Of a stretch of 64,000 nt of DNA, positions 3,980 to 62,254 are shown in pieces. Position 1 is the stretch's first letter, and each line of letters starts with the position of its first letter. A program made the position numbers and the translations under genes. Source of the stretch: Spongospora subterranea (lineage: Eukaryota > Endomyxa > Phytomyxea > Plasmodiophorida > Plasmodiophoridae); the NCBI GenBank assembly GCA_900404475.1, contig OUQQ01000082.1:1-64000 (forward strand), read 5' to 3'. Below the pieces are notes generated by a model that was not told the DNA's origin, did no database searches, and saw only the letters and a list, made by a program, of their open reading frames with translations.

Positions 3980-6900
3980 TTAGATCGAAATGCCATCAAT
4001 GGAAACTGCAAATGATCCTTGCATGCCAATGATATGTAAGGATGCTCGAGGGTCGACATTGCCGACAGATGACTGCGCCAAATAAAAACCTTGCTTGAAC
4101 CATTGCAGACTTGAGGCCGTTGGAAGCGCAGGCAACATGAGGGTTGTGTCCGCCTCGGTCAAAGGTTCACACAATGCATCAAACGCATCCCTGCGCTTCA
4201 ACATTGCTTGAGCATGTTCTAGATCACTTATGACCCTAATTAGCGACTGCCATTCTTTGCCGCTAAGAGGAGAAATACTAATCTGAAGCTGTGATGAAAC
4301 AATTTCTTCGGAGTGCAAGACAAGGTAAAGAACTTCCACAGGGATGCCCTCAATGTAAAAGTTCAGCCTCCTCAACTGATATGATACAGGAGTATCAGGA
4401 TGCAGACGTCGTAAACCGAGTGCCCTCCTTGTTGCTGAATCTATGGCTGATCTGGGCAATGCTAAAGTAAAGGCCATCGTAGAACATCCGTGCATGTAGA
4501 TATCGCGATTGGGCAATGCCAGAGGCAAATTCAAAGCAGAATCCTCGATCATCGATGTTGGAAAACATGGATCCTTTGAGCACACGACTACATCCTCAGG
4601 GACGTTGTTGGGGCTAGGATCGATATCCATAGCATCACTTTTAGCGAAAGAAAAAAAGATGGACGAATTCGATTTGCAGTTTCTGAATTTCGAGCCATTC
4701 GGCCTAACCTTAGACTGAGGACCGAAGCGAAGCTTAATTCCGTTAGATCCAGGGGCGAGGAGATCCGTAGATTGCTGAACGAGCGAACCGGAGTCGTTTT
4801 CCTTCTTCGACTCATCCGAAGAGCTGGTTAAAATTGAGGACGGAGTCAGCCGGAGAGCTTGAACCTTTGCGCGAATTACAGGCACAATCTTTCGACGCAT
4901 CATGGCTGACATCGGAACTCTAGGGGGTAAAGTTTTGAAGACGAGCTCTTCCCCTGGTGACGGATGAGGAGGCTTTTTGAGAAACTTCTTCGGCAACGAA
5001 GCAGGCATCTTCGAATGCTTTCCTAGGAGCGGAGAAGAGGACTCTAGCGTCAACTCCAACGACTGCGCTGGCCTGGGACGTTTCAATTCTGAAGTATTTT
5101 GCTTCGCAGCCTTTTGCACAACTTGAAGCCGCTTATCTTCACGTACTTTTTCCTTTTGCGCCTTAAGTTGTCGCTTGTGCTCGGCTTTTGCCTTAATTTC
5201 GTTCAGGGATGCTTGGATATCGACCTTTTCCAAATTCGCCTCAAAAATTACGCTCATCCTATCTCCCAACGTGCGGATCAGGGTCCCTTCTGCATTGTAG
5301 GCAGCACAGTTCGAAAAAATCAATCTGACATCAGCGACGTATTTTTCCGCAGTTTCATAGTAGCCGTCTAAAAGTCGCGCCTCCACAGTTCCTAAATCCA
5401 TGGGCTGAGGACAGAAATTCACATATTCCGGATACAAAGTTTGATCGACCGGAAAATGGAAGATCTGTTGACTGTCCATTTTCTTCAGGCGCCTGATAAG
5501 ATGAACACTGGGAGTCGGAGCTGGACGTTTTGGTGTAGGCTTCGTAACAGGAGCCGGTGCGTCAACAGAAATGGGCTCAACATGCAAATCCGAGAGAACC
5601 AAACGACTTGCTCGTTCAAACGCTTCGAGAAATACTGATCTGCAGTTTATGGCGACTTCCGAGAGTTCACGATTCGTTTCACCATGATAAGCACAGCAAT
5701 TCGCCCAGATGAGATCCACGTCGGATAAAAAATGCTCGATCGAAGCATATACACCAGCATCCAGCTTCCTGTTTATGGTCTGCAGATCTCGAGGAGAACT
5801 AACCCGGTCATAATATTCTACCAAATTAAAAATAATTGGATTAACTGGTTCCGCAAAAAGACGACCATAATCGAATACTCCGACTTCGGCTAAAGCTGAT
5901 TTTGCAGCACCTACCCATGGCTGATCCCGATTCGATTTTGCAAATTCACCGGGAAACGCCTCAAGAAATGAGGTTTCCACATGAAACAGCAGGAATCTTG
6001 ATGCAATCTTGGTCAAAATAGGGGTTCCTGGGTACCTCAATGCGTTGAGAAATACAAGATTGACGTCGCTGACAAAATCATTTGGAGTAGGATACCGATC
6101 CGCATCAAGGTTCTTTCGAACAGTCTTCAAATCCATCCGAGTTGAAACATAGTTATCGTAGCCTACATAATTGTACAACGCCGGGTCAAGCGGGTCCATA
6201 AAATCCCCTGATAACTCCAGGGCGCAAACCGACCGAAGAATGCCGGAACATAGACGAGAAGATGAGCGCGTCATTGGCATAGATGGAATAAATGATGCAC
6301 TAGAGTCTACAACTGCGGTTTGAGAGCGAGCTGGGGTCATCGGAGAAGAAGAAGGTACTGTCGAATTTGATAGAAGCGTTAAAGAAGGCAGTGCTGGGGG
6401 AAGAGCCGGGTCTTTACTTTCTGGAGCTGCAGCAGCTTTTATACCGAGTCCTTCCTTTACAGCGGAAACGTCTTCAATAGCAATTGGATCAGCAGATACC
6501 CTTCCCATATCATTGGCAGATGATAACTCGGCGACAGATTTTACCTGGACGCTTGCAGTGTCATCAGACTTGACGAAAACAGGAGACGAAACTTTTGTTA
6601 TCGGGACGCCTGCATCAGTATCTGCCAGCGACGGCGTTGCCGGAGGCGCCATAATCACAGGGGCCGAAACAGCTGGACCCAACAACGGCAGCAGATCGCG
6701 TTCAAATTTTTGCGACAGCGTGTTGGCGAGATCGACAATAGGAGAAGGCCCGTTGAAAATTCGACAATTCTCCCAGATTTGTGTAACGTCTGCAATAAAG
6801 TCATGATCCGAGATGTATAAGTCTTTTTGTATGTTGCTCTGCAAAAAGATTGAAAAAAGACCTAGAAATATTTTGAGATGCAGACCTTAACCGTGCGCAG

Positions 6901-10241: not shown

Positions 10242-10489
10242 TGTGCATAAACCCTTTTCGTTTGCAGACACGCTTGTTCTCGAGTGAGGGTAAAATTTTC
10301 ATGCATCATGCAGCTAGTTGAGTCATGGAGTCGGCTAACAAATTTCTCTCAAGTGTGACGTCATGGTTTTCAATTCACCTCATAGCAGTGAAAAATGAAT
10401 GACTCGGCCTGCGCTACGTCTTTGTTATCCATTATACAATTAATCGGTCGTATTTGACAACAGTTCTCTTTAATTTACTCTAAGCCTCA

Positions 10490-10500
10490 ACGTTATATAA
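10490..10500 (+). promoter_or_regulatory. TATA-like motif just upstream of the repeat-protein ATG
   Basis: The string GTTATATAAC ends directly before the ATG at 10502. It resembles a TATA box, but it is closer to the start codon than expected unless the leader is extremely short, so it may be only AT-rich leader sequence. Confidence 0.2.
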
Positions 10501-10501
10501 C

Positions 10502-13181
10502 ATGTCGCGTTCAATGATTCGAAATATCATCCTAGGCTCTGCAGCGGTCGCTCTAGCCTCTGGTGGCATGGCTATGTCCGATAACCTATCCGGTATGGAC
10601 CTAACCACAGCTGAAGCAGTTCCCACAACTTGCACAGCCTCTCAAATGTCGGCAATGTACAACAACTGCCTGTCTCAATGCGAGCAGACGACGCCATCTT
10701 CGATGATCGACTGCAATGACGTCACTACACGCTATCAGATCGTGAAATGCGCCGCATTAGCTGACGAATGTGATAAGACCCCCGGTAAGCCGGTATCCAA
10801 CGTCGTCCGTCAAGCAGAAGTTGCACGCCTCAACGATGTCTGCTCAAACGCATCGACTTTCCGCATGGCTGATGTCACTCTGGTCTTCGCAACAGCGTCC
10901 GATGTCGCCAATTCTATCGCCGCACAAGAGCAAATTGGAATGCTTTCTCAGAACGGCAACCTTTTGGCCAACGCTACATCATTCGACAATTTCGGAGTCA
11001 CTGGCAGCACCTTGCCCAATCATGGCAACAAACAAGGTCAATACCGCTCACAACTGGATGGGTCTATTGCGTTCGGGCCAAGCGCAGGTCAAGATTTCGG
11101 CCTTGAACTTCGCGGTGCCAAGGGCGGTATGTTGTCTGACCTGGATTCTCCACGCCTGGGAAGACCACAAATGCCAGGCGTCACTAGCCAAGTCAGTCGT
11201 CGTGGCAATGGCAAAGGCGGCCTTTATGGAAGCACCGGTTCTACTCCAGATATGACCGGATTCGTTGACCAGAATGGAACTTACTGGCCAGTCGATTTGG
11301 ACAACAACGGTACTACTTCCTCCGAGTTTGGCGGCGACTTCGAACTCGTTAAGGGGTCAAGACCAACCATTGACCGTAAGACTCGCACAAACAATGGGGT
11401 TGAACAGATCGACATCGTTTTCGGTACCGGGTCTGGAGATGACGACAACAGCAACTCATTCGGAAAAAGCGAATACTACGAGAACGGCAAGATCAAAAGA
11501 GCCGGCAAATTCGGTGACCTCTTCGGGAAAGGCAATGGAGCTGGAAATGGCGAAACCTACGGCAGAGGCAATGGTGCTGAAATTGACCTTGATATCATTG
11601 TTACTAATGGTGGTAAAAACGGAACTGGTCAAGGCGTCGGGACTGGAACCGGAAAATATAACGGAAATGGAGGAGTTTACGGCAACGGCAACGGGTCTGG
11701 CAACGGCAACGGGTCTGGCAACGGCAACGGATCTGGCAACGGCAACGGATCTGGCAACGGCAATGGATCAGGCAACGGCAACGGGTCAGGCAACGGCAAC
11801 GGATCTGGCAGCGGCTACGGTTACGGATCTGGCAACGGCAACGGGTCTGGCAACGGCAACGGGTCAGGCAACGGCAACGGATCTGGCAACGGCTACGGCT
11901 ACGGATCTGGCAACGGCAACGGATCTGGCAACGACAACGGTTACGGATCCGGCAATGGAAACGGCAACGGTTCGGGCAACGGCAACGGCGACGGATCTGG
12001 CTACGGTTACGGCGTCGGGTCTGGAAACGGCAATGGCGTCGGATCTGGAAACGGCGTCGGATCTGGAAACGGCAACGGCGTCGGATCTGGAAACGGCAAT
12101 GGCGTCGGATCTGGCAACGGCGTCGGTGTTGGATCTGGCAACGGCAACGGTGTTGGATCTGGCAACGGCAACGGTGTTGGATCTGGCAACGGCAACGGTG
12201 TTGGATCTGGCAACGGCAACGGTGTTGGATCTGGCAACGGCAACGGTGTTGGATCTGGCAACGGCAACGGTGTTGGATCTGGCAACGGCAACGGTGTTGG
12301 ATCTGGCAACGGCAACGGTGTTGGATCTGGCAACGGCAACGGTGTTGGATCTGGCAACGGCAACGGTGTTGGATCTGGCAACGGCAACGGTGNNNNNNNN
12401 NNNNNNNNNNNNNNNNNNNNNNNNNNNNNNNNNNNNNNNNNNNNNNNNNNNNNNNNNNNNNNNNNNNNNNNNNNNNNNNNNNNNNNNNNNNNNNNNNNNN
12501 NNNNNNNNNNNNNNNNNNNNNNNNNNNNNNNNNNNNNNNNNNNNNNNNNNNNNNNNNNNNNNNNNNNNNNNNNNNNNNNNNNNNNNNNNNNNNNNNNNNN
12601 NNNNNNNNNNNNNNNNNNNNNNNNNNNNNNNNNNNNNNNNNNNNNNNNNNNNNNNNNNNNNNNNNNNNNNNNNNAACGGCAACGGCGTCGGAACTGGCAA
12701 CGGCGTCGGATCTGGCAACGGTGTCGGAACTGGTATCGGCAACGGAGTCGGAACTGGCAACGGCAACGGCGTTGGAACTGGCAATGGCAATGGCGATGAA
12801 ACCTATGGAAAAGGAACCGGCTCAGGCAAAGGTGTTGGAACGGGCAAAGGGTCAGGCAAGTCCGGCAAAGGAGCTGGTCGTGGTTCAAACGAGGAGGAAC
12901 GCGGTGACGGTAAAGGCGCGGGATCCGGTAAAGGACACGGCAAAGGATCCGGCGGCAAAGGATCCGGTGTTACCGACTACACCTGGGACAACGCAGGCAA
13001 GAAGCCGGCGACCACACCGTTCATCACTGTTGCAGGAACCGGCGCTAATGGAACTAGTTCTTATAACAACACCAAGTTCCATGGAAATTCGACTTCAGGA
13101 AAGCCAAACTCGGTCGCCCGTATGGTCCCTGCCATATCAGCTGTTGCTGTTATCGCATTGACGGCATTCTTCTCGTTTTAA
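10502..13181 (+). CDS. Secreted Gly/Asn/Ser-rich repeat protein, probable surface or wall protein
   Basis: Residues 1-25 look like a signal peptide (basic start, then [16 protein letters not shown]). A region with about eight Cys follows (residues 35-120), probably disulfide-bonded. Then come about 170 residues of mixed sequence and a long array of GSGNGNG and GSGNGNGV units that runs into the assembly gap. After the gap the array continues as [12 protein letters not shown], then a Lys/Gly-rich segment ([14 protein letters not shown]) and a C-terminal hydrophobic stretch ([19 protein letters not shown]), which could be a GPI-attachment signal or a membrane anchor. The frame after the gap differs from the frame before it. 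Because the gap size is only an estimate, this is probably not a real frameshift. AATAAA at 13233 may be the poly(A) signal. No homologue is recognised. Confidence 0.8.
11685..12760 (+). repeat. Intragenic tandem repeat array (24-bp unit) with assembly gap
   Basis: From about 12129 the unit GGATCTGGCAACGGCAACGGTGTT repeats essentially perfectly to the N-run at 12393. The earlier part (11685 on) uses shorter degenerate units based on GGATCTGGCAACGGCAAC. Perfect copies next to the gap imply recent expansion, and the true length is unknown. Confidence 0.95.
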
Positions 13182-17603: not shown

Positions 17604-18097
17604 GAACTTGTTTAATTAGTGTAAGCTGACGCGAATGCTTTCTTTATACAAAGGAAAATGTTGGCCAACATTTACGTTCTAAGGTCGATACGCTATTTGG
17701 CGATATCACCAAATGCAGCTGCACCTGTCTTCCCGTCACCATATATTACTTCGCAGCTATCGTTAAATCTCGTCTTCTAAGTAGTCGTTCTTGTTGGCAT
17801 AAATTGTGTGTTTATGTGTGTGTTCCTATGGTTTCAGTGGCCAAGGGTGTGTTACGATGTATTCTCTCTACGTCGGGATTGCCAACTGGTAACGTTTAGG
17901 TTGACTCACTGGCGTTGAGTCAATGAGTTGATCAACACATAGAGCGGATGAAACATATCTAGTGGAAGTCCAGCCGATGGCGTGACATCACTGCCAATTA
18001 AAGTTTCGATCATTATTCTATTGACGCTTTACCGTCGTCGTTCTCGTTCCCAATTATATTTTTATACGTGCTCATAAGACACTGATCGTTCTCCATA

Positions 18098-18631
18098 ATG
18101 CCGAGCACCGCCCTATCCAACGCGGCTTTGGTCGCATTACACCGAGATTCTCGCTGCCGCATTGGCGACCAAATAAAATCGCCATCAAACCCACCCACCC
18201 AGAACGGGAAATACAAGACGGAAATGTGTCGTCTATGGTCAGAGCATAAGCAATGTCCATATCAGCTGAAATGTCAATTTGCACATGGGCCAGAAGAATT
18301 GCGACCTGTTATAAGACATAATCTATACAAAACCGAAAAGGTAATCCAATCCACACGTTGGTCAATTCGCAAATTTTGACGCGACGATTAGTGCAGGAAA
18401 TTCCATGAAGAAGGCGTTTGTTCGTTTGGGTCACGATGCGTATTCATACATAAGGAGGCGGTCGCATTGCCGAACATCGCGTCACGGGTTGCGTTGCCAA
18501 CCGTGCCGCCGTTCCCCAACACGATGTCGCCGCAGGAATTCCTGGAGACATTAAAACTCGGGTCAATCAGACTGGACACCCTCCTTCGTCCATCGGTCTT
18601 CACGTCCGATTTATATCCACAAAAACACTGA
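18098..18631 (+). CDS. Tandem CCCH zinc finger protein (TIS11/tristetraprolin type)
   Basis: Proteins with this double finger bind AU-rich elements in mRNA 3' UTRs and promote decay. Exons 18098-18340 and 18392-18631 (51-nt intron) give 160 aa. Finger 1 is YKTEMC-x8-C-x5-C-x3-H (about residues 45-63). Finger 2, split off by the intron, is YKTEKC-x8-C-x5-C-x3-H. The linker between fingers is 18 residues, the canonical spacing, and both YKTE leaders are intact, so RNA binding should be preserved. The remaining N- and C-terminal parts are short and disordered, and the protein is much smaller than animal TTP. Its stop lies 58 nt from the convergent WH2 protein stop. Confidence 0.9.
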
Positions 18632-18689: not shown

Positions 18690-21600
18690 CTATTTAGCAT
18701 TTTCGTTGACGCGTTTCTTCCTGGCTTCGGCCTTCTGCGCCACAATCTGTGCCTGTTGTGCCAGATAATTTCAAGGATGATCAAGCGGCCGGATACGATG
18801 AGCTTACAATATTCATCATTCCCATTAAGCCCATCGGTCCCTTATCCGAAACGGTGCTGCTGGACGAATTTTGGAGCGTTCGCTCGCTGGCTTTCTTGAG
18901 CTTGGGTCTGTCTCGTATTGCAGCCATCAGATCAGCCTGACTATCGCCATGAATTAGCTCTGGTCTCACACCAGGGCCGTCCGTCTTCTGTGCTCAGTTT
19001 ACGGTTGGTCAATAAAATCGGCCAAAACCGAATTAACATCACCTTCAGCGCTGGTTTGGCGCGTAGCGCCGCCATGAGATCGACAGGTGAAGATGACGGT
19101 GGAGGAGCCATCGCAATTGGAGGCGGAGGTGGAGGTGGGACGCCAAGGGACGGCGGAGGTGGAGGTGGGATGCCAAGGGGCGGCGGTGAAGGTGCAGCAG
19201 GCAGAAAAGAAGTAGGTGGAGGCGCCATGGTTGAAGGTGACTGAACATGAAGGGATGGCGTAGCCGATAAGGTCAACAGCCTTTGTTCAACGGACGATAG
19301 TTTCTCTTCGGCGAGTTTTCGTTGGTTTCTTTCATTCGCTAACTGCAACTCGTATCCGGCGATAATTCGGGCCTTTTCATCTTCGTGGGTTTTCGTAACG
19401 TCCGACACGGTGTCGACTGACGAGAGTTTCTGTTCGGCGTTGATCCGTTGAACTCTCTCATTGTCAAGCCTTAGTTCGTAATCCGCGATCATCTTCACCT
19501 TGTCGTTTTCGTATGTTTCCGTCACAACATTGACAGCTGTGGAAGCGGTGGCGGCAGAATTGGCATTAGCCAGACGTAACTCATACTGAGCGCGAACCAG
19601 ATCGATGGCCTTCGACAGCTCCTCACTGAACTTCGCTTTCAATGTAGCGACGTCTCGAGCATGCGTCGTGGCCATGTCAGTGATATTCTGATGGCAGGGT
19701 TTCAGTTTCCCTAGGTGTAACAAAAAGTATCGCCATTCCAACAACCTGTTGTAACGCACTCATGGCGTTACTATCACACGTGGCCCCTCCCGATTTTCTC
19801 AGATGAGCGATCTCCGCTTTGGCGTGTTTCAGCGATCGATGTTCTTGTTCTAGTTGACCTGAGGACAACATTGTTATCCAAACGAAGATGGGATTGTCGG
19901 TCAATGAGGGAGGTTTGAACAACTTTGTAGCGATGATAAGCGCTCCTCATATTCCTGGCGTAAGCGGCCCTCAGAGTTGATCACCTCGGCCTTCAACCGC
20001 TCTCGCACATCCACTGATGACCGTTTGATCATCGCTTTCTGATTATCCTGTTTCAGGCGCGCTATCTCGTCTTGATATTCTCTCAGCGTCGCCTCTTGCG
20101 ATTCACGAAGAATCCGTAGATCTGTTTCATGTGCGCTATCACGGTCAACAAGTTAATCACTCAACGAATGAACACCAAACCCATCTCAGATTACCTTCTA
20201 TTCGCACAGGGATCTGTAATCATGTTCAGTTCATCGTTGGATTTCTGTTCCAGCTCGATCTGTAGTTTGCTCAATGCGGTGCGCTGCTTCTCTAGCTCTT
20301 CTGAGGTTTCCCTGCGATAACGCTGAGCAGTGGAATCGACGGATCTCGATCCTGTACCTGATCCGTTGCTCATAAATGGCGTCCGATATTCGTTTGGCGT
20401 CTTCTAATTCTGCCACCTGAACGATATTGTCAGAATGACAACCGTGGAACTTGGCGGTTTCCAACTTTTTTCATAAAACGATCCCGTTCTGCCTCAACGG
20501 CGGCGCTGATTTGGACGTCCTCTTCAGACCTTTTCATGGCTTTCTTCAGTTCAACTATGGTGTTCTCCAGGGCAGCTCGCTCTTCCATTCTTGCTTCGTT
20601 GAGCACTCCTTGAATCTGTAATACCGATCAGAACACCATTGCGTTGATTTCCTCTGATCAAAACAATGAACAGGTACTTTGAGCAGTTCTTTATGTTTTC
20701 GATTAAATTCTTCAGTTTCCTCCTTATGACGCTCTTTGATTTTATTCTGTTCTTCTGTCCGTTGTTTCTCCTCGGATCTCAGTTTCTGTTCGAGCACATG
20801 ACGCATATGCTGCAGTTCGGTCTCGAACTCCCTTCGAAGATGTTGCTCTCGTGACGACTGCTCATCAACCTGAAACTCCACTTGAGGATTCGTGGTCAAA
20901 CCTGTTTCCTGTGGACCAACCTGTTGGTCTCGAGCTTCGGCGCTATTGCGTTCAAGCTCTTCCCTCACGGTTTTCAGTTCGACTTCAAATTTCTGACGTA
21001 GTGTCGTCTCCAACTCCAAAGAATTACCTATTATGTACTTATAACTCATCGATGATGTTGATTAACGTATAGGCATTACCCAACGATTGAACTTTCGCCA
21101 CCTCAGATTCAAGCGTCAATCTGAGCTGATCTTCACGCTCCAGCGCTTCCGATTGCAACGCCGCCGCCTTCGACGCCAGATCAAGTTCGAACTGTCTCTT
21201 GAGTTGATCCAATTCTAATTGGCATTGTGCAGTGACCTGATCTCTGTCAAAACCGTTAAAATCATCCCATTCCATTAACTGAAGATTAGGAGGTTCCTAC
21301 GATATTTCTTTCTTTGCAATCTCGGTTTGCGTGCGAACCTGGTCAATCGCGCGTTGGTCAGCTTCTAATCGAATTCTGACACGACAATTCAACGGCAGCG
21401 CTGACGCAATGATCGCGACATTTACCGCTCCTTCTCGACGGCCAGTTGCATTCGCGTCTCTTGCCGTACCCGGTCAAGATCATCGTTCTCACGAGCGTCA
21501 CGACTGCTCCTAGTTTTGGACTCGAGCTCGGCGATCCTCGCTAACGCCTTCTCCAGATTACGACTTCGCTCCGCTTCGATCTGTTCGCTCTCTAACTGCA

Positions 21601-23176
21601 TCTGCCGTTTACGCTCTTTCAACGCGACCTGTCATCCCGTTCGTCAATATTCCATTTCTGTACAGTTCTAGGAAAGATTTCATCTGAAACGTAAAGCGAA
21701 CGAAATTACATTACATTTACGCTGGTTCGTTACAGTGTTTGGCCAGCGATGTATCAAACTGACTCAATTGTGACAGCCCGATATTTTTAGTGTGCGTTAC
21801 TGGGCCAGTCGTATGTTGAATGCAAGGTAACATGTGTGACGCTGATGAAAGCGTTGGACAAAACTGTGCTGGTGGTGTATATTTACATCGGCAGCGGTGG
21901 ACAACTGCAACAGTTCCGCCTGGTGCTGGGAGCGGAGCCGCTTCTCCAGCTCGGCGTTGGACTGGGCGATCGCCCTCTGCTGTTCCGTGATGGCATTCAG
22001 TCGAGCTGCTTCAACCTAAATTGACGTCGTGGTTCAGTCTATCCTTATACGCCCGTTGCAGTTGTCCAACGTTTTTCAACTCAATGGCGTTTTCCAATTC
22101 GATGCGTTTCAATGCAGATCGTGCCTCGTGCAACTCCAACTGCGATTTTTGCTTCTCTGTTTGCAACGCGTTCAGCGTGGACTTGTCGGCCGCTTGCAGT
22201 TTTTCCAATTCAGTGATGCGCTCGGCGCTGGCTTTCTCCAGCAAAACCTGTTCCCGTTTTAATTCATATACTTGCCTGAAATCGATTCACAATCAGGTTT
22301 TCTCAATATTCCACAACTTTGGCCAATCTACGTTTGTAAATTGATTGACGATTGTCTTCTTCGCGCCTGTTGTGCTGATTGCATTAGTGATGAATCCAGC
22401 GGTTCTCCACCGTGTTGAGGCTCCACCAAGACAATCGCCATCTTCGCTGCGACATTATCCAGTTCGAGTTTGGCCAGATTGCTCTGCTCGATACTGGAAT
22501 GGTCAGTAATGGGAACCGCCGTCTGCAATCGTGGCAGATGCGGCGCGATCACCGCCGAGTACGACGCCAGCGACGACAGACATGCGACCACGCGACTAGG
22601 ACGTCGATTGTCAAACAGGTCAGCGGCTTGAATAACCTATTATTGATCACGATCGGCAACCCAATCTGCAATACAGCATACGACAGTTCACCTCGTGTTT
22701 CGGAACTCCCAGAGCTCGTGCTCCTAAAACAAACCTGGACACCAGACAGTTGTATTCAACATGAGTCAATTTCTGGAACAAACTCAGATTCGCCAGCTGA
22801 AAATCAAACAAATGGTTTGAAAGTTGTGGTTTCAAATAGATTCACGTGAAAAAAACTCATTGGCAGACCAAATGAGGCGAACTCAGCTCGAGTTTGAGAA
22901 CGTTACTGACCTCCCGATGTTCTCGAGTTCCAGAAACGGTTGATTTGCTCGATTGATTTTTTTTATCAAATCCGGTCGGATTTTGTTCAGTAATATACAG
23001 AGATCAACGCCGCTTTTCAGAGCGGTGCAGATATCGTCATGTGCCAGTTTCGTGCCAAGGACCGATTCGACCCAGGCGCGAACAGCGGCGACCTCGGTGG
23101 GGTCCGCCTTGTCTGACACGCTGGAGGAAGCCGCCGCATGTGGAACAGGAGGCATCGCCTTAGCTGGACCTCGCAT
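18690..23176 (-). CDS. Calponin-homology / coiled-coil / polyproline / WH2 actin-binding protein
   Basis: Probably an actin organiser that links filaments (CH) with monomers (WH2). A type-3 (SM22/calponin) CH domain spans the first exons (23176 to about 22560): AVRAWVESVLG, LKSGVDLCILLNKIRP, then LGVPKHE and ADLFDNRRPSRVVACL. About 700 residues of Glu/Lys/Arg/Gln-rich coiled coil follow in many exons (22560-19270), then a polyproline block (PPPPPSLGVPPPPPPP) and two WH2-like motifs: DLMAALRAKPALK just before a 58-nt intron and DLMAAIRDRPKLKK just after it. A short last exon (GCACAG..., stop TAG at 18690-18692) ends in a basic helix, AEARKKRVNENAK. Internal exon borders in the coil were not all resolved, and one CH-domain junction near 22800 appears to add about 20 residues. 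Confidence 0.75.
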
Positions 23177-29146: not shown

Positions 29147-30091
29147 ATGTCGGAAGCAATTGGAATCATGAACGAGGCGTATTTTGTCGGGCGCCACGAA
29201 CTAATCGACTGGGTAAATACGTTGTTGAAGCTGAACATTCAAAAGGTAGAGGAGTGCTGTACTGGCGCCATTCACTGCCAGATATTCGACGTCCTTTATC
29301 CGGGCAAAGTCAATATGGGAAAAGTCAATTATGAAGCCAAACACGAGTACGAATATGTTAAGGTAGCCTACTGAGTGGGGTTTTATCGAGAATCTGTTGT
29401 TTTTCTTACCCTTCCTATCTGCATTTTTATTTCTCAGCATCTCGCTTTCTGACACTGTTTGTAGAACTTCAAATTGCTTCAGGATCTTTTTGGACGAGTC
29501 GATATTCATCACTACGTTCCTGTAGATCGAATCATCAAAGGCAAATACCAGGATAATCTCGAATTGTTGCAATGGGTCTACGAGTTTTTCAACCGCAATT
29601 ATAATGGTCTCGAGTACGATCCAGTTAAACGTCGTGCCAAATCGAAAGGCGGTTCCTCAGCTGGTGCTGGTGCTGCTAAGCGCCCAACCTCCAACGCTAT
29701 GGCCACGAAATTTTCATCATCGCTGTAATGGGATTAATATTTTGTTATACTAGGTTTGAACCGGTTTTGCTTCAGGAAAACTGGAGCGAAACGGATTGTC
29801 GGCAAAGAAAACACGCAGATTCCAACGCAAGAAGGGTCGGCACTCACTAAGAATATGCCAGCGCGTGAGGACGCAGCTTTAGGTAAAGCGAAGAAAGAAA
29901 TTGCCGAGCTAGCCATCGTACTCAAGGAGCTCGAGAAGGAGCGGGACTGGTATTTTAGCAAGATATTAGAAGTGGAGAAGCTGTGTAAGAATGCTCCCGA
30001 ATCTCCCATTCTCCAGTCCATACTTGATGTCCTATATGCGACCGATGGCGACCAACCGGTCGCCGCCATTAGCGGAGAAATTAGCGTCTGA
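29147..30091 (+). CDS. EB1 (MAPRE/BIM1/mal3 family): EB1 / Bim1 microtubule plus-end binding protein
   Basis: Tracks growing microtubule plus ends and recruits other tip proteins. Exons 29147-29362, 29465-29724 and 29776-30091 give 792 nt (263 aa; human EB1 268). The N-terminal CH domain reads ELIDWVNTLLKLNIQKVE, GAIHCQIFD, KVNYEAKHEYEYVKNFK and KGKYQDNLELLQW. A Ser/Ala/Lys linker follows, then the EBH coiled coil and four-helix region (LKELEKERDWYFSKILEVE, ILDVLYATD). The C-terminus is ISGEISV rather than the EEY tail of animal EB1, so CAP-Gly partners would not be bound in the usual way; yeasts also differ here. The gene converges on the Furry gene with 167 nt between stops. Confidence 0.96.
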
Positions 30092-30258: not shown

Positions 30259-33200
30259 CTACCATCTGAGCTCTCTTCTTGTTCTGTTCGAGCCGTTACC
30301 GGCTGCGTATTGATGGTCGGGCGTAGTTCCGAAAGCCTTCGTTCCTGCCGGCATCGGTGGAGTCCGCGATGGTCGGCCAAAGACATTACGACGTGCGCGT
30401 GTTGCCAAGTCATCAGATCGGACAGAGGCCGGCGACTCTAAGCGAATATCGCGAATCGATGTGTTCCTACCAATGATGGCGCTTACTGGACCCCAGCTTT
30501 GCGTGCTTTCTAGGTCAATCGATGACCTCGTTGTTTCCATGTTCATGATCGTCATTGAGGGTGCAGATGGCATATGGATCGACGATCGGCGTCGTAAAAA
30601 TCCAAAACTATCCCCGTTCCGCACGTTCCAATCCGATGGCCGGGGAGTAACCTCATTGGAACTGGGCTGTTCGCTTTGCTCGCTGAGCTGTCTATATAAA
30701 GCCGGATAAAGCAATGATGGAGCGCGCGCCAATCGAGGTGATTGAATGGCCTCTTTTGTTCTCGGTGAAACCTGTTCCGATACTTTATCCATGTCTCTCC
30801 ATCGATTTGATACAAGAGATAATCGCCGAGAATGTGTCGAATAGACGTGACGTCGGCGGCGAGCCCAGTCTCCGCTCCATGTCAGGCTTTGATGCTCGTC
30901 GTCATCTTCGGCTGGAATACGAGGGAATTCTTCCTCATCAATATGTAATCTCGGAGGGGATACAGGGTGAGGAGGGGGCGCATGTGTAGGGGAAGTAGCA
31001 GGGCATGGATTCGGTGGAGGACCTGGAGAAGCAGCAGGAGTGGTTACATGCGATTGGGCAGTAGGATCAGTTTCTGGAGAGGAAGAAATCTGATGCTGTG
31101 GCCAGTTCAGGCATGTCCCCATTCCGCAAGTATGCTGTAGTACAGCGCACATCACGTTCATAACTTCATGTCGCTGGGTGCTGTTGTGAAGTGCCATGAT
31201 GGCGTCAAATATTGGGCGGCCTTCGTTGCGTAAAGCAGTTACACCCCAATTGAGATGGCGGAATAGAGCGCCAAGAATAATCAAGATGTTTTTTTGATGC
31301 TCGGATGATCCCTCGTTCAACATTGACACCAGCGTTTGGAACGCCTTAAAATCGCCAAAACGTCCCATCCAAACTGAAAGACACGGTGCAATCGCATCGG
31401 CAAATTTGATTGCAGAACTGAAATCACGTCGCTCGTACAGCGATAATACTCTAGCCATGACCTGATCATCCAGATGCGTTTCGCAGAGACGGCGTAAATT
31501 TCTTGTGGCTGCCGCCACGGGAGCAGGAATAGTTGAGTCTGCGGCATGTTCGCACAGCCACGGCAGAAGACCGACGAAATTCATAAGAAATCGCGATTCG
31601 TTTGGATCAACAAACGTCGAGAACCGTGATAATGTGAGTTTCGTAAGAAGAATGTACGCTGGTTGACGAGTGACCAAGGTGGAAAGACCGCGCAGCACGT
31701 TTGGTTGCAGGCCATGGAACGGACGTTTGCGTAATCCCATGATGTGGGTACGAGCTGCTTGATCGTCAACTGGTATTTTCTCCAGAATTTGAATTATTAG
31801 AGTCGCCGCATGAACGAATACATGAGCGGTAGCCTGACTGTGACTAATGAGATCCATACATCGCCAAAGCAGTTGCGGAAAATCGGCGAGGTTGCCACCG
31901 GTGGGTACCACCGGTAGACGATCGATGATAATAACTAGAGTGGCCAACACTTCACTTGTTATGGATGCATGCGCTTTGGAAGATGCCAGACTCGGCTCCA
32001 ACTGATGTACTATTGCTGGGAGCTGATCAACGGCTACGCGTTCTGCCAAAATACGAAAGATTTGATGCGATCGGCATGCTATAAATGGTGATCGGTTCGT
32101 AAAACGGAGTGCCCATTGCAGAGCGTAGCGAACCCATTTCGCGGACATCAACCCAGTCCCAGCGAAATCACACACCTTGATTAGGGAATCGACAACAATG
32201 GCTATCTCGTCCGTACTTTTCGTCACTAAATTCGAGTCGGATATCATTTCACGATGCCATAAAGGCTGCCCATCTCCAGACATCAAATGGTCCTACACAT
32301 TTGTTTAGAACAACAGCACATTAGCATTAACTTTTCTACCATGAGCTGTCGAGCCTCATTGCGCCTTGCAACGAGTTGACGATGACGATTCTGATCAGTA
32401 GTGGTGTTATCAGAATCGTCGATCCCGCGAAACGCTAAGGCGTGCAACAGATTCAAGAGCAAAAACTTGCAAGTCTCACGGATATCGAATATTCTATGAT
32501 CAAGCCCGAGCAAAGCCGCATGCATCATCAAAATTATGTAATCGTCCAACTGTTCAAGATTCTTTGCTTCTAGTTCATAAGCGACTTCAACCAGAAGCAT
32601 TAACGCAATGTGCGAGGTTGATGGCCGGCGTTCAATCGACGAGTTACCCAGGTTACCCTTCGTGGATAATACTGGACGACGCCTGCGAACTGGCGACATT
32701 CCTGATTCGGAAGGCGGATAAAGGCCTGGCGACTTGAATAAATGACCCTTAACGGCAAATTCTTCACCGGATCGATCTAATCTATGAAGCCGTTCCTCTA
32801 ACTTTGAGATTGGTTTCCAGGCAGAGCTAGGCGATTCGACAGGCATCTCACCCAAAATCGGGTCACTTTCTTGTTCGATTTCTCCGACCAGTTCCTGGAT
32901 CACTTCTTTGATTGCAACGCTGCTGAGATACAGCGTAATGCGTTTTGCAGTTTCGAATATGATTAAAGCATCCTGGCCCGGCTGCTCGACTTCGCACAAA
33001 CAACATTTCACCAAAATAAATTTTAGCGTGCAACGGATGTTGCTATGGCCTGGCTGCGCAGCAGCCAACTCGCGCCATATTCGCTGCAGCTCGAACTCGA
33101 ACCTAGCGCCATGTTCGACAGTCACGCGGAACACTGAATTCGCCAAAACGATTTAATAGTTGAAACGAATTGAAACAAACTGGATTCTTACAAAGTTCTA

Positions 33201-36200
33201 ACATTTGGGAACCGACTTTTCTGTTTAAATCGATGTCTTTAATCCAACATTCGCAGTAGCGTAGCATGATGATTTGGTCATAAGAAGGAACTGACGGCAA
33301 GTATTTCCAAAGGGTGGATATGAAGTCGTCTGCACAATCCTTGTATTCACGAGCAAAACGAGCAGAGAGCATCAACTGCGTCTGTAAATATGTGTCCGGT
33401 AGGCGACTCGTTATAACCATGTGAGGAGCCTGGTTCCCATGGTATATACCAGGGCGCTATACACAAAAAACACTATTATATTGCAATTGTCCGATTACAG
33501 TTGGGAGCAAAAAAAGTTTGTTCAGTTTTCGTTAAAAAATCCGTTATCAACCTGTCTTTTAATACAGAGCAGAAATATTCACCCATACGCACGAAAAGCG
33601 TTTCAAACATAAAAACACCAAGAGTAGTAACCTTCTCCGCTAAAACTGGGATCATGTCCATGGCCATGGATCTGACTGTAAATGACCGATCGCCAAGTTT
33701 ATAAACAATTAGATGAAGCAGCTCTGCCAGCGCCACTTTTGGACGATGGTCACTCATCCAGAACTCCCCAAACACAAGGAAATATCGCCTGGACAGTGGG
33801 CCTTCAGCGTAACATTGTGACAGATAGTAATCAATGATGGCCGGCGAAATATTCGACGTTAGCAAGTTGTTCAAGGCAAGAGAACCGATATCTCGAACTC
33901 CTGGCCTACGACATAACGTGACTTCGTTTAGATCAAAATCGTTCACAAAAAAGACAGATTTGCATGCAGAAAGTAAACCTTACAAGTTCCACGTAGACAA
34001 GCATTAGGAAAGCAAAAGTATGAAAATATGGAACATGTCCAAAGATGCACTGACAACAATGCCCGAAATGGAATCAGTTATTGCAGTACATACTTGGCAC
34101 TTTGCAGAATGCTGTGAATCCATGGGAAAATCGTGGAATCCGGAACGACGCCTGACGGGTCTAGATACGGTCCTAGAACCAACGCTGACATGGCCGCCAT
34201 AACCGCCATCTCGTGCGGGGGAACTCCATCGATAGCCAGTGGGCCACCCCCACCTGGGCGAATCCGCCCTGAGCGCACCTGACGTGGAGATCTAGTCGTC
34301 CCGCTGCGTCGCCAGCGGAGGAGGACGCTAAACACGTGGGATCGAAGCCCTTGATCCAACGGAGATGAACATGGCTCAGCGAACGCCTCTTTGCAGAGTC
34401 GGTCAACGACTACTGAAAAATGGTGCTTGAATTCGACGTTGTTTGAGTCTTTTTCCAAAAACGAGCATGTTTTTTGAATAAACGCAATCAGCCGCATTCT
34501 GATGTGTTCGTTGTCCCGCAGGAATGAAGAACGAAGCCCTTCACATATTAGTCGATGAATGTGTCCGATGCGAACACGTAAGACTTCGGGTTCGTGAAGT
34601 TCTGCCTGGACTGGAATGGCGGTGAGAACAGCACCGATTGCAACAGAGGAAACATTTCCCAATGCAGTAACGGCGATGCAAATATGAGGACCATCAGGCC
34701 CGCCCCCTTGAACAACTCCTGCACATCGGGCAATGATTGCCTCTGCTTGTCTTGCTTGAGGGTGATGAACGGCAACCGAGGATGCAATCAGTGCTAGCAC
34801 CCCAATATTACGGTAATGATAATATAGAGGAAAGGCTAATTTCAGATCGCGATCTGAGAGAAATGTTGCCAGACGTGACGCTGCTTCTGCAAACACGGCT
34901 TGTAACGTTTCCGTTAAGCCCCCAGTTCCGTGAACAAGCCTCTGCATCATCTCAGCGTAGCAAATAGTCCACCGATCCTCGTTAACGATGCCTGTTTGAC
35001 ATGTTCCAGCATGCACAAATCGAACAGCTGACGTTTTCTGACAAAGTGCCACAACCAGATGGCGATCTGCAGCCTCAGTCTCCCAGTTAGCGTCCCAAAC
35101 TCGATTACAAGCAGCAACACAGCATTCCATCAAATCTGGTACAGTGTGCTTTTCGAAGGCTCCAATAATCACGTCCTCATTAGCTTCAATCAGGTCTAAA
35201 ACTAGTCCACGGCGGCTACGTGGGGACGAATTCTGTTCAGGATGCGGAATATCCCCGGGATCACCTTCGGCAACTGGTGGGATTGCAGGAGTGTCTTCGG
35301 CTCCGCCGAGGTTTGCATGACAGCGCACCGAGTCCAAAATATGGAAGCACAGGATTCGTGTTCGGGGACATAAGCTGGTAAGCCAAAATAAGGCGGATGC
35401 TTGAACGTTGGCGATGCAAGAAGACGAAAGACCATAAGGGGACGTCCCAGAAATTGAATTACTAGTCCGACTCCTCAAATGCGTTTCCAAAACTCTGAAT
35501 AAAACAGAGAGCAAATGTAAAGCGACATCGCCGTATATGACTGGAATGTGACAAAGAAGATATTCGGCGAAATGCGAAAGAAAACGGCAAACCATCTCGG
35601 GTTGGTCGTATTCGATGCTCTCGATAGCAAAACCAGCCGCGACTCTAATCCCCTCATTCTGATGAATCGAAGCTCTACAAATTATTCGCAATAGTTCACC
35701 TTCTGGAATTGCTTGAGTCCAAATAAAGGGCAGCGCCGAGAGCGCAAACCTGCGATTTCTTACTAAACTTGTATTTCAGAATCACTCATTCTTACCTGTA
35801 AATGACCGTTGGCAAATGCACAGATTCGGTGAGAGCCTCTGCAGCGCTATTATTTGAAAATATGCAAGTAACGTCGGTTAGTACGACCGGTTTAGCGTAT
35901 GGCGTAGTCAAAAGTGTCATTCCAACATTGTCATCGCATTGCCTCAAAATTTTTCCAAGAAGGCCACTGAGCTGGTGCGAATACGGTCCAAGATCGGCGC
36001 TATGGAACGGTTGTAAGACGCAAAGACGGTCAGTAATCGTCTCCAGCATTGTTGCCACCGAGGGACCGTAATGAGTCCGGAAGCCTGGCGGGAGATTTAA
36101 ACGTGCAACAGAGCTCGTAAATAAACGTGTCCTGCGTTCACCCCGATTCAGAATCGCTATCAATGCTCGCAACGACAGCTGAACATGTTCGTTGAATACG

Positions 36201-37621
36201 ACTCCTTCTTCTCCATTGGCACTGTTCAGCATTCGGAGTATCACTTCTGACAAGCAGAAGTCAAACTTGCCCTCAGCGACTGTCAAAATTAATCCAACAA
36301 GTCCATCATGCTCCATTTGATGGGACCCGTCAATGTAAGGAAGCCGCTTATGCCCACCGAAGAGGATGCGACGCACCACAGTGTCGAGGTTGTTGGACGT
36401 TGCATTTTTTCTGAACGCCACCTGTTCGAGGTAGACATGGAACAGGCGCTGAATGCAGGAAAGAGCGATCAAACGCGACTCAAAATCCTCGTAAAAAACG
36501 ATCAGCGACTCTAAAAGGACACCAAAATTTGTAATGAAATGCTCCGGTTCACAAACGCATAAAATAACCGTCATTAAGGGATATGCCAATGAGCGATGCT
36601 TCGGTTTTCTCGCCCAACGTCGCACGGATACGTAAATCTGGGTCATGAGCGCGTACCATGACGTGAGATTAACCGAAGCAGTGGTCGGCTGTACCGCAAT
36701 GGGGTAGATGATGCATGCCAATGTTTCGGCTAGCGCATCCTTGACCATTGGCTTTCCAGAAATCGTCTCGAACGTGCGAAACAACGACATGATGAATCTC
36801 ATAGCGCCTTCGACGGCAGCGTCCGAATCGAGACGCAGATCTAATGAACGCAGGCCGCGTAAATAATAAACGGCTACGGTCGGGCTCTCTTTCATGATCC
36901 CGTCTGAAAACAACTTGGATATTCCGGCGAGATGGAACGGCGACATTCTTCCAAGCAAAATGGACCACAGATCGAACAGATATTCTCTGATTGTCCCTGA
37001 CGGCAGCGATTGAGTACTTGGACAGGACGACCCGAAAAACTGCAACGCGATTTGAGAGACAGACCGGCTAGCGGCGTCGAGTTTAGCGGCGCGAGCCGCG
37101 TGTCGTCGGAAATATTCCATACTTGCGGATTCGATCACATCTGTGAAATTTCCTGGAATTGTAGCACCATCATAACATGATAGCGCAGCGATACAGGTTT
37201 CGACGAAGACGATATCGACGGTGACATGACGCTTATCATAGCCATGATCCCCAGGGATAGCAGTGTCCTGAGCGGGACTAGCTGGTGTATGGGTTCCGTA
37301 TTCGGTCATCAAACGCAAGTGTTTAGTACTTCGCCAGGCCATTAATTCGATTAGGACTCGATTCAAGCAGTATTGGCAATATCGTGCAAATGCCTGGAAT
37401 ACACGATCGATCGCTGTGTCAGGATAGAACGCGACGGCTTCCGACTCGCTTTGCGCGCACAGAAGCTGCAAACGGTCAGCACTAGCCAGTTCGAATTCGC
37501 TCATCAGGAAGCCTGCCACCAGCCCGCAAGCGCAGTGCACAGGCTGCTGTGGAGGTGGCTGAGATCGGCTTCGTGGTACATGTCCCCGACGAGGAGATGA
37601 ACTCCTTCCCGCCACCGCCAT
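30259..37621 (-). CDS. Furry / Tao3 / Mor2 cell morphogenesis protein
   Basis: Large HEAT-like scaffold of the NDR kinase (RAM/MOR) pathway controlling polarised growth. Main coding blocks: 37621-35796, 35749 to about 34095, about 33950-33476, 33420-33103 and 33146-32283 (joined by splicing), and 32286-30259. The protein is about 2,300-2,400 aa, the usual size. The first intron (35750-35795) splits an Arg codon in phase. The N-terminal region matches the family: FLMSEFELASADRLQLLC, then ELMAWRSTK, FVETCIAALSC and LTVILCVCEPEHF...RLFHVYLEQV. The C-terminal region has FLMNFVGLLPWLCEHA, followed by a Ser/Pro-rich disordered tail of about 300 residues with many RRRS-type basic/serine sites. The start Met precedes a basic Pro-rich leader. 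Some middle exon edges are approximate. Confidence 0.85.
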
Positions 37622-38339
37622 TACTCGCCCAAATGTTGAAATGGGGAATATATCCCGGAATGGGTAACGGTATTATGGGATAATGTAATATGGGACTGTA
37701 GAGGGTTACTTCATAAACAGTCAGATTACGTCACCTCTGATCACGATAATATATCACCCGATCACTTTCACAATCGCATATTGACCCAATGTCTAATGGG
37801 TCAGGTACACGATGGCGAACACGTCATGGATCGGAGTACACTTCTCATTTGCCCTTTCTTTGATGGGCATCGGGGCGAAACGTCTACGTCCTGATAAGAA
37901 GCGTCAATCCAGATATTGATGCAGATTATCGCCTATTTGACGCATCTGACCGAATTGACGTACTGATAAACGCATCTACGCCTCAAAGATCGCAATAATT
38001 TACCAGGTAACCTTTTGTAAGAAAGGAAAATTGCAACTTACAACGATCGCATGTATGTATCGTGCTCAAGAACCCGGATTTGAAGTTTGTTCCCACGAAT
38101 TTGGAACGATGAAGCCACCCGTATTGGTTGAAGAATCTGCGTATATTCAATAGGTTTAACATATAATTATCGCCCTGCTTCCGGCACATCTGTTTGTTTT
38201 GCTACCAAATCAAACACCAAAATCAAATATTTTCTCAACATCAACCTTCGCAGGAAGGTCATAAATTGACAATTCCATTTAGTGTGTCTCGTTGGTGGAA
38301 GAGCCAGTTCCCATATATTATGTGTATTTTTTAGCGTTC
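37622..38339. other. Intergenic, Furry 5' flank and WD40 3' flank
   Basis: Both neighbours are on the minus strand. I see no supported gene. A 68-codon minus frame at 37983-38189 has no recognisable content. Around 37880-37985 a loose series of TGACGCATCT / ACGCATCT-like words recurs, possibly upstream binding sites for the Furry promoter. Confidence 0.35.
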
Positions 38340-60992: not shown

Positions 60993-62254
60993 ATCGCCAG
61001 TCCGGACGCTCAATGTGGACAGCAGAAATCAATGAAGAGCTTAACAACCTTTTAGATCACAAAACCTGGCAAGAGGTTGACAAAGTTCCAACAACAACGA
61101 GATCGATCGGTTGTCGGTGGTTGCTCAAAATCAAGAAATTAGGCGAAACCAAATTCCTTCTGATTCCAAGTGGGTGCTACGTTATCTCGATGAGCAAATT
61201 ACTCTTCGGTTCAAAGCCCGTCTCGTAATTCAAGGCTTTCGGCAACGCTATGGAATTGACAATACTACCACATATGCACCGGTGATGCGCTGCGATATCC
61301 TACGATTGATGCTTGCATTGTGTTCACAGGACAAAGAAATTGTGGCCGAGCAATGCCAGCTTATCAGAGGAGATCTATATGAATATTCCCAAAGGAATGA
61401 AATCCAGGCAAAGGCTCTCAAACTGCTTCGGTCTATATATGGACTTAAGCAGGCTACTCACGGTTGGGATACTGTTATTGACAAGTATCTTGTTGAGGAA
61501 CTGGGGTTCATCCGCACCAGATCAACTCCTTGTCTCTATCATAAGCGAACAGCTGTTCACCGCTTTGTTATTATTGGCTTGTATGTGGATGACATGTCGA
61601 TATTCGGCCACCCTGGGTTGGTCCACGACGTCAAAGCGTCTCTCGCTGCACGCTTTCAGATGTCAGATCTGGGATCTCTTCAATTGTGTATTGGAGTGGA
61701 GATCATGCGCGATCCCAACATTGAAAATATTTTCTTGTCGCAGTCTCGTTATCTTGAGGAGATATATGTTATGGCCGACTCGCCAGCTACTCCAGACCTG
61801 AACCTGTCGACCGACATGAACCCCCAAACAGACATGGACCAGGAGCTTGTAGCCATTGAACAAGTTAGGATCAACTATCGCTCTGCAGTTGGTCATCTGA
61901 TTTGGCTTCTTCATACGCGACCGGATATTGCCTATGCAGTTGGAGAAGTTTCGCGGTATGTGCAAACTCCTGGTCTTCAACATTTCGTGGCCCTGAAGCG
62001 CATTGAATGGAACGCGGGACATCGGACTGTTATACCGTTATGATGACAAAGTTGGCGAGAAACATGTGCTTCTTGGCAATTCTGATTCTGATTGGGCGGG
62101 AGATCTGGATACTCGACGCTCTCCTTCTGGATATGTGTTCCTTCTGAATGGATGTCCAGTGTCATTTCGTTCAAAGAAGCAAACATCCACCGGCTTGTCG
62201 TCCTGTGAGGCTGAGACGATCGCATCTTCACTGGCTGCTGCGAAAGCAGACTAG
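60993..62254 (+). pseudogene. Copia reverse transcriptase and RNase H
   Basis: The longest intact frame is 61111-62043. RT motifs: RFKARLVIQGFRQRYGIDNTTTYAPV, QLIRGDLYE (usual D-V-K-A-F changed), LKLLRSIYGLKQATHGW, the catalytic LYVDDMSIFG, and YRSAVGHLIWLLHTRPDIAYAV. After a frame change near 62010, RNase H reads GNSDSDWAGDLDTRRSPSG and SSCEAETIASSLAAAKAD, where a stop interrupts it. The codons before 61111 carry TWQEVDKVPTTTRSIGCRWL in another frame. Confidence 0.88.

What the first reader, a model, noticed from the sequence alone, without database searches (positions are those of the whole stretch)
18690..23176. Actin protein combining a calponin-type CH domain, long coiled coil, polyproline and tandem WH2 motifs
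The sequence directly shows an N-terminal SM22-type CH domain, about 700 residues of coiled coil, PPPPP runs, and two WH2-like motifs (DLMAALRAKPALK, DLMAAIRDRPKLKK) separated by an intron. CH domains of this type are known to bind or bundle F-actin, polyproline binds profilin and SH3 domains, and WH2 binds G-actin. Having all in one dimeric protein would couple filament attachment with nucleation or elongation. I do not know a described family with this order. Inference: a lineage-specific actin nucleator or elongator for amoeboid or zoospore motility.
Basis: partly seen in the sequence, partly recalled or inferred. Interest (0 to 1): 0.75.

Follow-up and report, generated by a model that had tools for sequence, protein, structure and literature searches.

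The report
Four-module actin-assembly protein
One gene of a probably zoosporic fungus appears to encode a single protein that joins a calponin-like head, a long coiled-coil rod, a profilin-type proline stretch and two actin-monomer-binding motifs, which suggests a filament-anchored actin-assembly factor built from known parts in an order I did not find described.

Summary
On the minus strand, 23176 down to 18690 splices (16 GT-AG introns, 17 exons) into one open frame of 1092 aa: a calponin-type (type 3) CH domain (Pfam E 9.9e-17; best solved match calponin 1, E 1.3e-19), an interrupted coiled coil (aa 209-940), IPPPPPP/VPPPPPPP runs, and two WH2-type motifs. Splicing completes the first motif (PALK becomes PALKKT). 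The qualification: Pfam's WH2 model reports neither motif. Yet motif 2 finds Spire's WH2 first among 177,635 PDB sequences (E 0.01), and in a scan of 128,219 six-frame positions with a profile of known WH2 cores only training motifs and motif 2 reach 11 bits. No transcript is at hand. The genome search found one copy. No relative with the same order was found, but the searches were weak. Best reading: an oligomeric elongator/nucleator working like Ena/VASP or the proline-WH2 half of WASP, anchored by CH, without the acidic Arp2/3-binding end. F-actin binding by a single type 3 CH is disputed. Known parts, apparently new order: a new variant of a known kind.

The parts
18690..23176 (-). whole gene model: 17 exons, 1092 aa; exons 23176-22911, 22734-22692, 22636-22332, 22275-22071, 22015-21887, 21628-21426, 21375-21301, 21243-21080, 21027-20678, 20615-20466, 20416-20358, 20311-20195, 20135-19924, 19858-19746, 19687-19043, 18987-18808, 18752-18690
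   Evidence: spliced by hand at GT-AG sites keeping one frame; in-frame codon score best in 16 of 17 exons
22559..23089 (-). calponin-type CH domain, aa 30-129, split over exons 1-3
   Evidence: PF00307 E 9.9e-17; calponin 1 (1wyp) E 1.3e-19, no gap at either exon junction, aa 89 and 103
19259..22265 (-). interrupted coiled coil, aa 209-940
   Evidence: COILS-like calculation with 10 shuffles
19097..19222 (-). proline-rich stretch, aa 953-994, with runs of six (971-976) and seven (981-987) prolines
18982..19090 (-). WH2-type motif 1, aa 997-1014, SPVDLMAALRAKPALKKT; the intron 19042-18988 lies after PALK
   Evidence: own WH2 profile 14.5 bits, 12.5 without the Spire C core; no PDB match at E<=10; no Pfam match
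18880..18942 (-). WH2-type motif 2, aa 1028-1048, SQADLMAAIRDRPKLKKASER
   Evidence: own WH2 profile 25.4 bits, 17.4 without the Spire C core; Spire WH2 (3ue5) first of 3 matches among 177,635 PDB sequences, E 0.01; low-confidence AlphaFold2 model has a helix over QADLMAAIR; no Pfam match
18690..18831 (-). C-terminal tail GLMGMMNIAQIVAQKAEARKKRVNENAK and stop, no acidic DDW end; its last exon is the least certain part of the model
   Evidence: sequence; weak coding score of exon 17

Best explanation
The gene encodes one actin-assembly protein of a zoosporic fungus. The coiled coil makes it a dimer or oligomer, so that at least four WH2 motifs and several proline tracks lie together at one end. 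The proline tracks collect profilin-actin, the neighbouring WH2 motifs take over monomers and hand them to a barbed end, and the calponin-type CH domain at the far end of the rod holds the molecule on an existing filament or on the cell cortex. It would thus work as a tethered elongator, with some nucleating ability, in the way of Ena/VASP or of the proline-WH2 part of WASP-family proteins. It would not activate Arp2/3, since the acidic end is missing. Shown: domains, their order, a single reading frame after splicing. Inferred: the transcript, oligomerisation, all binding events, the activity.
For: CH, coiled coil, a seven-proline run ending about ten residues before WH2 motif 1, WH2-type motifs. 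In WASP-family proteins a WH2 and a proline-rich sequence together give polymerase activity, profilin-actin being passed from one to the other (PMC5753033, abstract and section 14). A single type 3 CH domain, that of GAS2, binds F-actin by co-sedimentation and cryo-EM (PMC12084551, passages). WAML and WAWH proteins are precedents for joining a bundling domain or a long coiled coil to proline-rich and VCA regions (PMC3298513, passages). The host has other actin-assembly genes: WASP, WIP-like and SCAR-like genes (my names) and formin FH2 on three contigs.
Against: Pfam's WH2 model reports neither motif. Motif 1 has no PDB match at E<=10. Calponin's own CH did not bind F-actin in a classical experiment (Gimona and Mital 1998, seen only as cited in PMC7240100 and PMC12084551), and this CH is nearer to calponin than to GAS2 (GAS2 at E 0.086). 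Profilin and ARPC2 were not found in this genome by exon-wise search, which the tool says does not show absence. No transcript, no relative, no measured activity.
Confidence: 0.45

Rival explanations
1. Tandem-WH2 nucleator of the Spire kind: the oligomer lines up four or more monomers into a seed; the CH domain only places it.
For: Motif 2 is most like Spire's WH2, RPxLKKASxR; two motifs with a linker of about 15 residues.
Against: No Spire domain besides WH2-type motifs: CH is the only Pfam match; proline runs shortly before WH2 fit elongators better.
Confidence: 0.22
2. Filament bundler or cortex linker: CH plus a long rod cross-links filaments, while WH2 motifs only buffer monomers or cap ends. 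CH need not bind actin at all and could bind another partner.
For: Long interrupted coiled coil; the only hits of the CH region among proteins of 600-1911 aa were LMO7 isoforms (5 of 706 candidates), CH proteins with a coiled-coil part (recalled); type 3 CH domains are described as functionally diverse (PMC7240100, passages).
Against: LMO7's PDZ and LIM domains are absent; a plain linker does not need proline tracks and WH2 in WASP order.
Confidence: 0.2
3. Two genes or a mis-spliced model: the CH part and the WH2 part belong to different transcripts, for instance split at the 258-bp intron 21886-21629.
For: No transcript data; that intron is the longest; junctions were chosen by hand; codon scores separate introns from exons only weakly.
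Against: The frame stays open through all 16 junctions; in-frame codon scores are best in the exons on both sides; 258 bp would have to hold the end of one gene and the promoter of the next. The residues just after the junction (aa 317-439) are, however, not predicted as coiled coil.
Confidence: 0.1
4. The WH2-like motifs are chance or decayed sequence in a proline-rich tail.
For: Pfam WH2 negative; motif 1 is reached by 4 of 3,000 tail shuffles and 5 of 300 whole-protein shuffles.
Against: Motif 2 is reached by 0 of 3,000 and 0 of 300 shuffles and stands alone with the training motifs among 128,219 positions; the Spire C core, which by recollection is part of a solved actin complex (3ue5), scores only 7.9 by the same profile.
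Confidence: 0.08

Closest known systems
Ena/VASP proteins
   Same: Proline-rich sequence next to a WH2-like G-actin site (GAB) that takes profilin-actin (PMC5753033 section 14); F-actin site and coiled-coil tetramer (recalled).
   Different: No EVH1/WH1 domain; CH at the far N-terminus; coiled coil before the proline tracks, in Ena/VASP at the C-terminus (recalled); two WH2-type motifs.
WASP family, especially WAML and WAWH (PMC3298513, passages)
   Same: Proline-rich region then WH2; type II WAWH has a long coiled coil, WAML an IMD domain (membrane-deforming, actin-bundling) in front.
   Different: No GBD/PBD, WH1 or IMD reported by Pfam, no acidic end; CH instead.
Spire
   Same: Second WH2 motif is most like a Spire WH2.
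   Different: No other Spire domain; long coiled coil and CH.
LMO7 / LIMCH1
   Same: N-terminal calponin-type CH (34% identity over 83 aa to LMO7), followed by coiled coil (recalled for LMO7).
   Different: No PDZ or LIM domain, which LMO7 has (Pfam list); has proline runs and WH2-type motifs.
Calponin / transgelin and IQGAP/Rng2
   Same: CH sequence is nearest to calponins, then Rng2/IQGAP and Vav-3.
   Different: No calponin repeats and no IQGAP domains reported by Pfam.

Membership tests
WH2 motif | score above the Pfam PF02205 cut-off | tested here: not met
WH2 motif | amphipathic helix, then LKKT/V-like core at WASP spacing | tested here: met
   LMxxLRxxxxLKKT and LMxxIRxxxxLKKA; own profile, Spire match of motif 2; helix only in a low-confidence model of motif 2
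WH2 motif | binds G-actin | not testable with these tools
   none
type 3 (calponin-type) single CH domain | CH sequence nearest to calponin, Vav, IQGAP | tested here: met
Ena/VASP | EVH1/WH1 domain (PF00568) | tested here: not met
   only CH in Pfam at E<=1
WASP-family Arp2/3 activator | acidic C-terminus with W after WH2 | tested here: not met
   model ends KKRVNENAK (last exon weakly supported), while the host's WASP and SCAR-like frames end in DDWD and DDWKE
Formin | FH2 domain | tested here: not met
Spire | KIND domain and four WH2 (recalled) | tested here: not met
   no other Pfam domain; only two motifs above 5 bits
LMO7/LIMCH1 | C-terminal LIM domain | tested here: not met
Calponin | calponin repeat PF00402 | tested here: not met

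The most novel reading that the evidence does not exclude
A family of CH-anchored, coiled-coil actin polymerases with tandem WH2, found in crawling zoospores of early fungi and not described so far, that builds unbranched filaments beside the WASP/SCAR-Arp2/3 system.
Probability: 0.27. Interest if true: 0.6.

Novelty: new variant of a known kind. Interest (0 to 1): 0.42.

Why it matters
Chytrid fungi keep crawling motility: WASP and SCAR genes correctly predicted pseudopods in a chytrid (PMC5461030, passages). A lineage-specific elongator anchored by CH would add a piece to that machinery and show once more that new actin regulators arise by re-ordering old modules, as WAML did (PMC3298513, passages).

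Tried and rejected
Homologue searches. CH region: 5 hits, all LMO7 isoforms of one mole rat, among 706 candidates. C-terminal region: none of 308 candidates at E<=1. Profile of the CH domain with the coiled coil masked: swamped by calponins; the best 120 of 1,660 hits were listed, none of those 120 with PF02205; only the 7,985 candidates sharing most words were scored, so nothing follows about the architecture. I had expected the length filter to keep calponins out; it did not. These searches say little, since candidates must share exact five-residue words.

Species: not named. Chitin synthase, WASP and a CFAP-like gene suggest a zoosporic fungus; integrin beta was not found, but that search is exon-wise and rang nowhere. 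The rRNA search of the genome did not complete.

Relationship to host CH genes: nearest is a calponin-like gene on contig C410, 44% over aa 38-93; of 15 matches of the whole protein in the genome 14 lie in this gene and one in C410. The other CH places were looked at only in part (translations of four loci).

AlphaFold2 on exon 16 alone, without relatives: mean pLDDT 63.8, too low to lean on. Direct repeats in the gene: one family of three 28-nt copies, nothing of note. tRNA and Rfam families in the window: none.

Considered and dropped, by eye only and not tested: a WASP-type C region in the tail (resemblance to MSMMNHIKTLLDARR of the host WASP) and a formin DAD-like reading of motif 1.

Full report
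The gene. Reading the minus strand from the ATG at 23176 to the TAG ending at 18690, 16 introns with GT-AG ends can be removed so that one frame of 1092 codons plus stop stays open. Fourteen introns are 46-65 bp long; two are 176 and 258 bp. The first long one lies inside the CH domain, where the protein aligns to calponin 1 without a gap at either exon junction (aa 89 and 103), so those junctions are well supported. A codon score prefers the predicted frame in 16 of 17 exons; the last exon, 63 bp, is not supported, and the score separates exons from introns only weakly. Whether one transcript covers everything cannot be decided here.

CH domain. Pfam PF00307 matches aa 30-129 with E 9.9e-17; it is the only Pfam match of the protein reported at E<=1. 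Among solved structures calponin 1, calponin alpha and calponin-2 come first, then Rng2/IQGAP, Vav-3 and transgelin-2; GAS2 appears only at E 0.086. The sequence is thus a single type 3 CH. The literature is divided on whether such a domain holds F-actin: calponin's did not (cited in PMC7240100, passages), GAS2's does, with a cryo-EM structure (PMC12084551, passages).

Coiled coil. It is a broken rod, not a continuous one. Oligomer state is unknown.

Proline and WH2. The stretch 953-994 holds runs of six and seven prolines, the latter ending at aa 987, about ten residues before the first WH2-type motif. This is the neighbourhood that WASP-family polymerases use to pass monomers from profilin to WH2 (PMC5753033, abstract and section 14). 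The first motif is cut by an intron after PALK; the next exon starts with KT, so that splicing makes LKKT. Pfam's WH2 profile reports neither motif, and this counts against. For a test of my own I took ten WH2 cores, five from PDB chains and five from the host's WASP-, WIP- and SCAR-like frames. Motif 2 scores 25.4 bits, within the leave-one-out range of the training motifs (7.9-36.5); motif 1 scores 14.5, also within it. Of 3,000 shuffles of the tail, none reaches motif 2 and 4 reach motif 1; of 300 shuffles of the whole protein 0 and 5 do. With the Spire C core removed the values are 17.4 and 12.5; in 128,219 six-frame positions of window and loci only four training motifs and motif 2 reach 11 bits. 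Motif 1 is split by its intron and is not among those positions. Searched alone against 177,635 PDB sequences, motif 2 finds Spire's WH2 first (E 0.01; three matches in all at E<=10, one of them a ribosomal protein at E 2.6) and motif 1 finds nothing.

Host. The genome G000 has 20.6 Mb in 679 contigs. It has 11 Chitin_synth_1 matches on 6 contigs, a WASP with WH1, PBD and WH2, a WIP-like and a SCAR-like gene with WH2 over Pfam's cut-off (names mine, not confirmed by the pieces scanned), formin FH2 on three contigs and a CFAP-like CH protein. Profilin, ARPC2 and integrin beta gave no match in exon-wise searches that do not show absence. I read this as a zoosporic fungus; the species is not known. 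WASP plus SCAR correctly predicted crawling zoospores in a chytrid (PMC5461030, passages).

Relatives. In the genome search 14 of 15 matches are the gene's own exons and one is the calponin-like gene on C410. The protein database gave LMO7 for the CH (5 of 706 candidates), nothing for the C-terminus (0 of 308) and calponins for the profile. The tool needs shared exact words, so absence of relatives is not shown.

Mechanism. The anatomy fits a tethered elongator: CH as anchor, rod as spacer and oligomeriser, proline tracks and two WH2-type motifs as the delivery end. The acidic end that WASP-family proteins use on Arp2/3 is missing, while the host's own WASP- and SCAR-like frames have it. A Spire-like nucleator and a bundler with monomer buffering remain open.

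Novelty. In print I found WAML and WAWH proteins, which join other domains to the same kind of C-terminus (PMC3298513, passages), but no CH-coil-proline-WH2 order; the searches were made, open-access papers only, and most of the papers listed were not opened. I call it a new variant of a known kind.

Noticed in passing
window 29147-30088, +: EB1 (end-binding protein) gene with an intron in its CH domain; Pfam CH E 1.5e-10 and EB1 motif E 7.6e-11 on pieces. It is the second CH gene of the window.
   Followed up: partly
window 3983-6886, -: 968-aa open frame with four bromodomain stretches.
   Followed up: no
window 30262-37672, -: Furry/Tao3-type cell morphogenesis protein: MOR2-PAG1 N-terminal, central and C-terminal matches in two of several open frames; whether they form one gene was not tested.
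   Followed up: no
window 10484-13181, +: Secreted-looking protein with a long Gly-Ser-Asn-Gly-Val repeat, broken by a run of N, and a hydrophobic end like a GPI signal (by eye).
   Followed up: no
window 18086-18379, +: CCCH zinc-finger exon (PF00642 E 3.3e-5) on the opposite strand, converging on the 3' end of the gene.
   Followed up: no
window 61081-62043, +: Copia-type reverse transcriptase fragment (by eye).
   Followed up: no
window 19289-19513, -: Two tandem copies 42 residues apart inside the coiled coil, aa 856-888 and 898-930: YENDKVKMIADYELRLDNERVQRINAEQKLSSV and HEDEKARIIAGYELQLANERNQRKLAEEKLSSV (seen by eye, placed).
   Followed up: no
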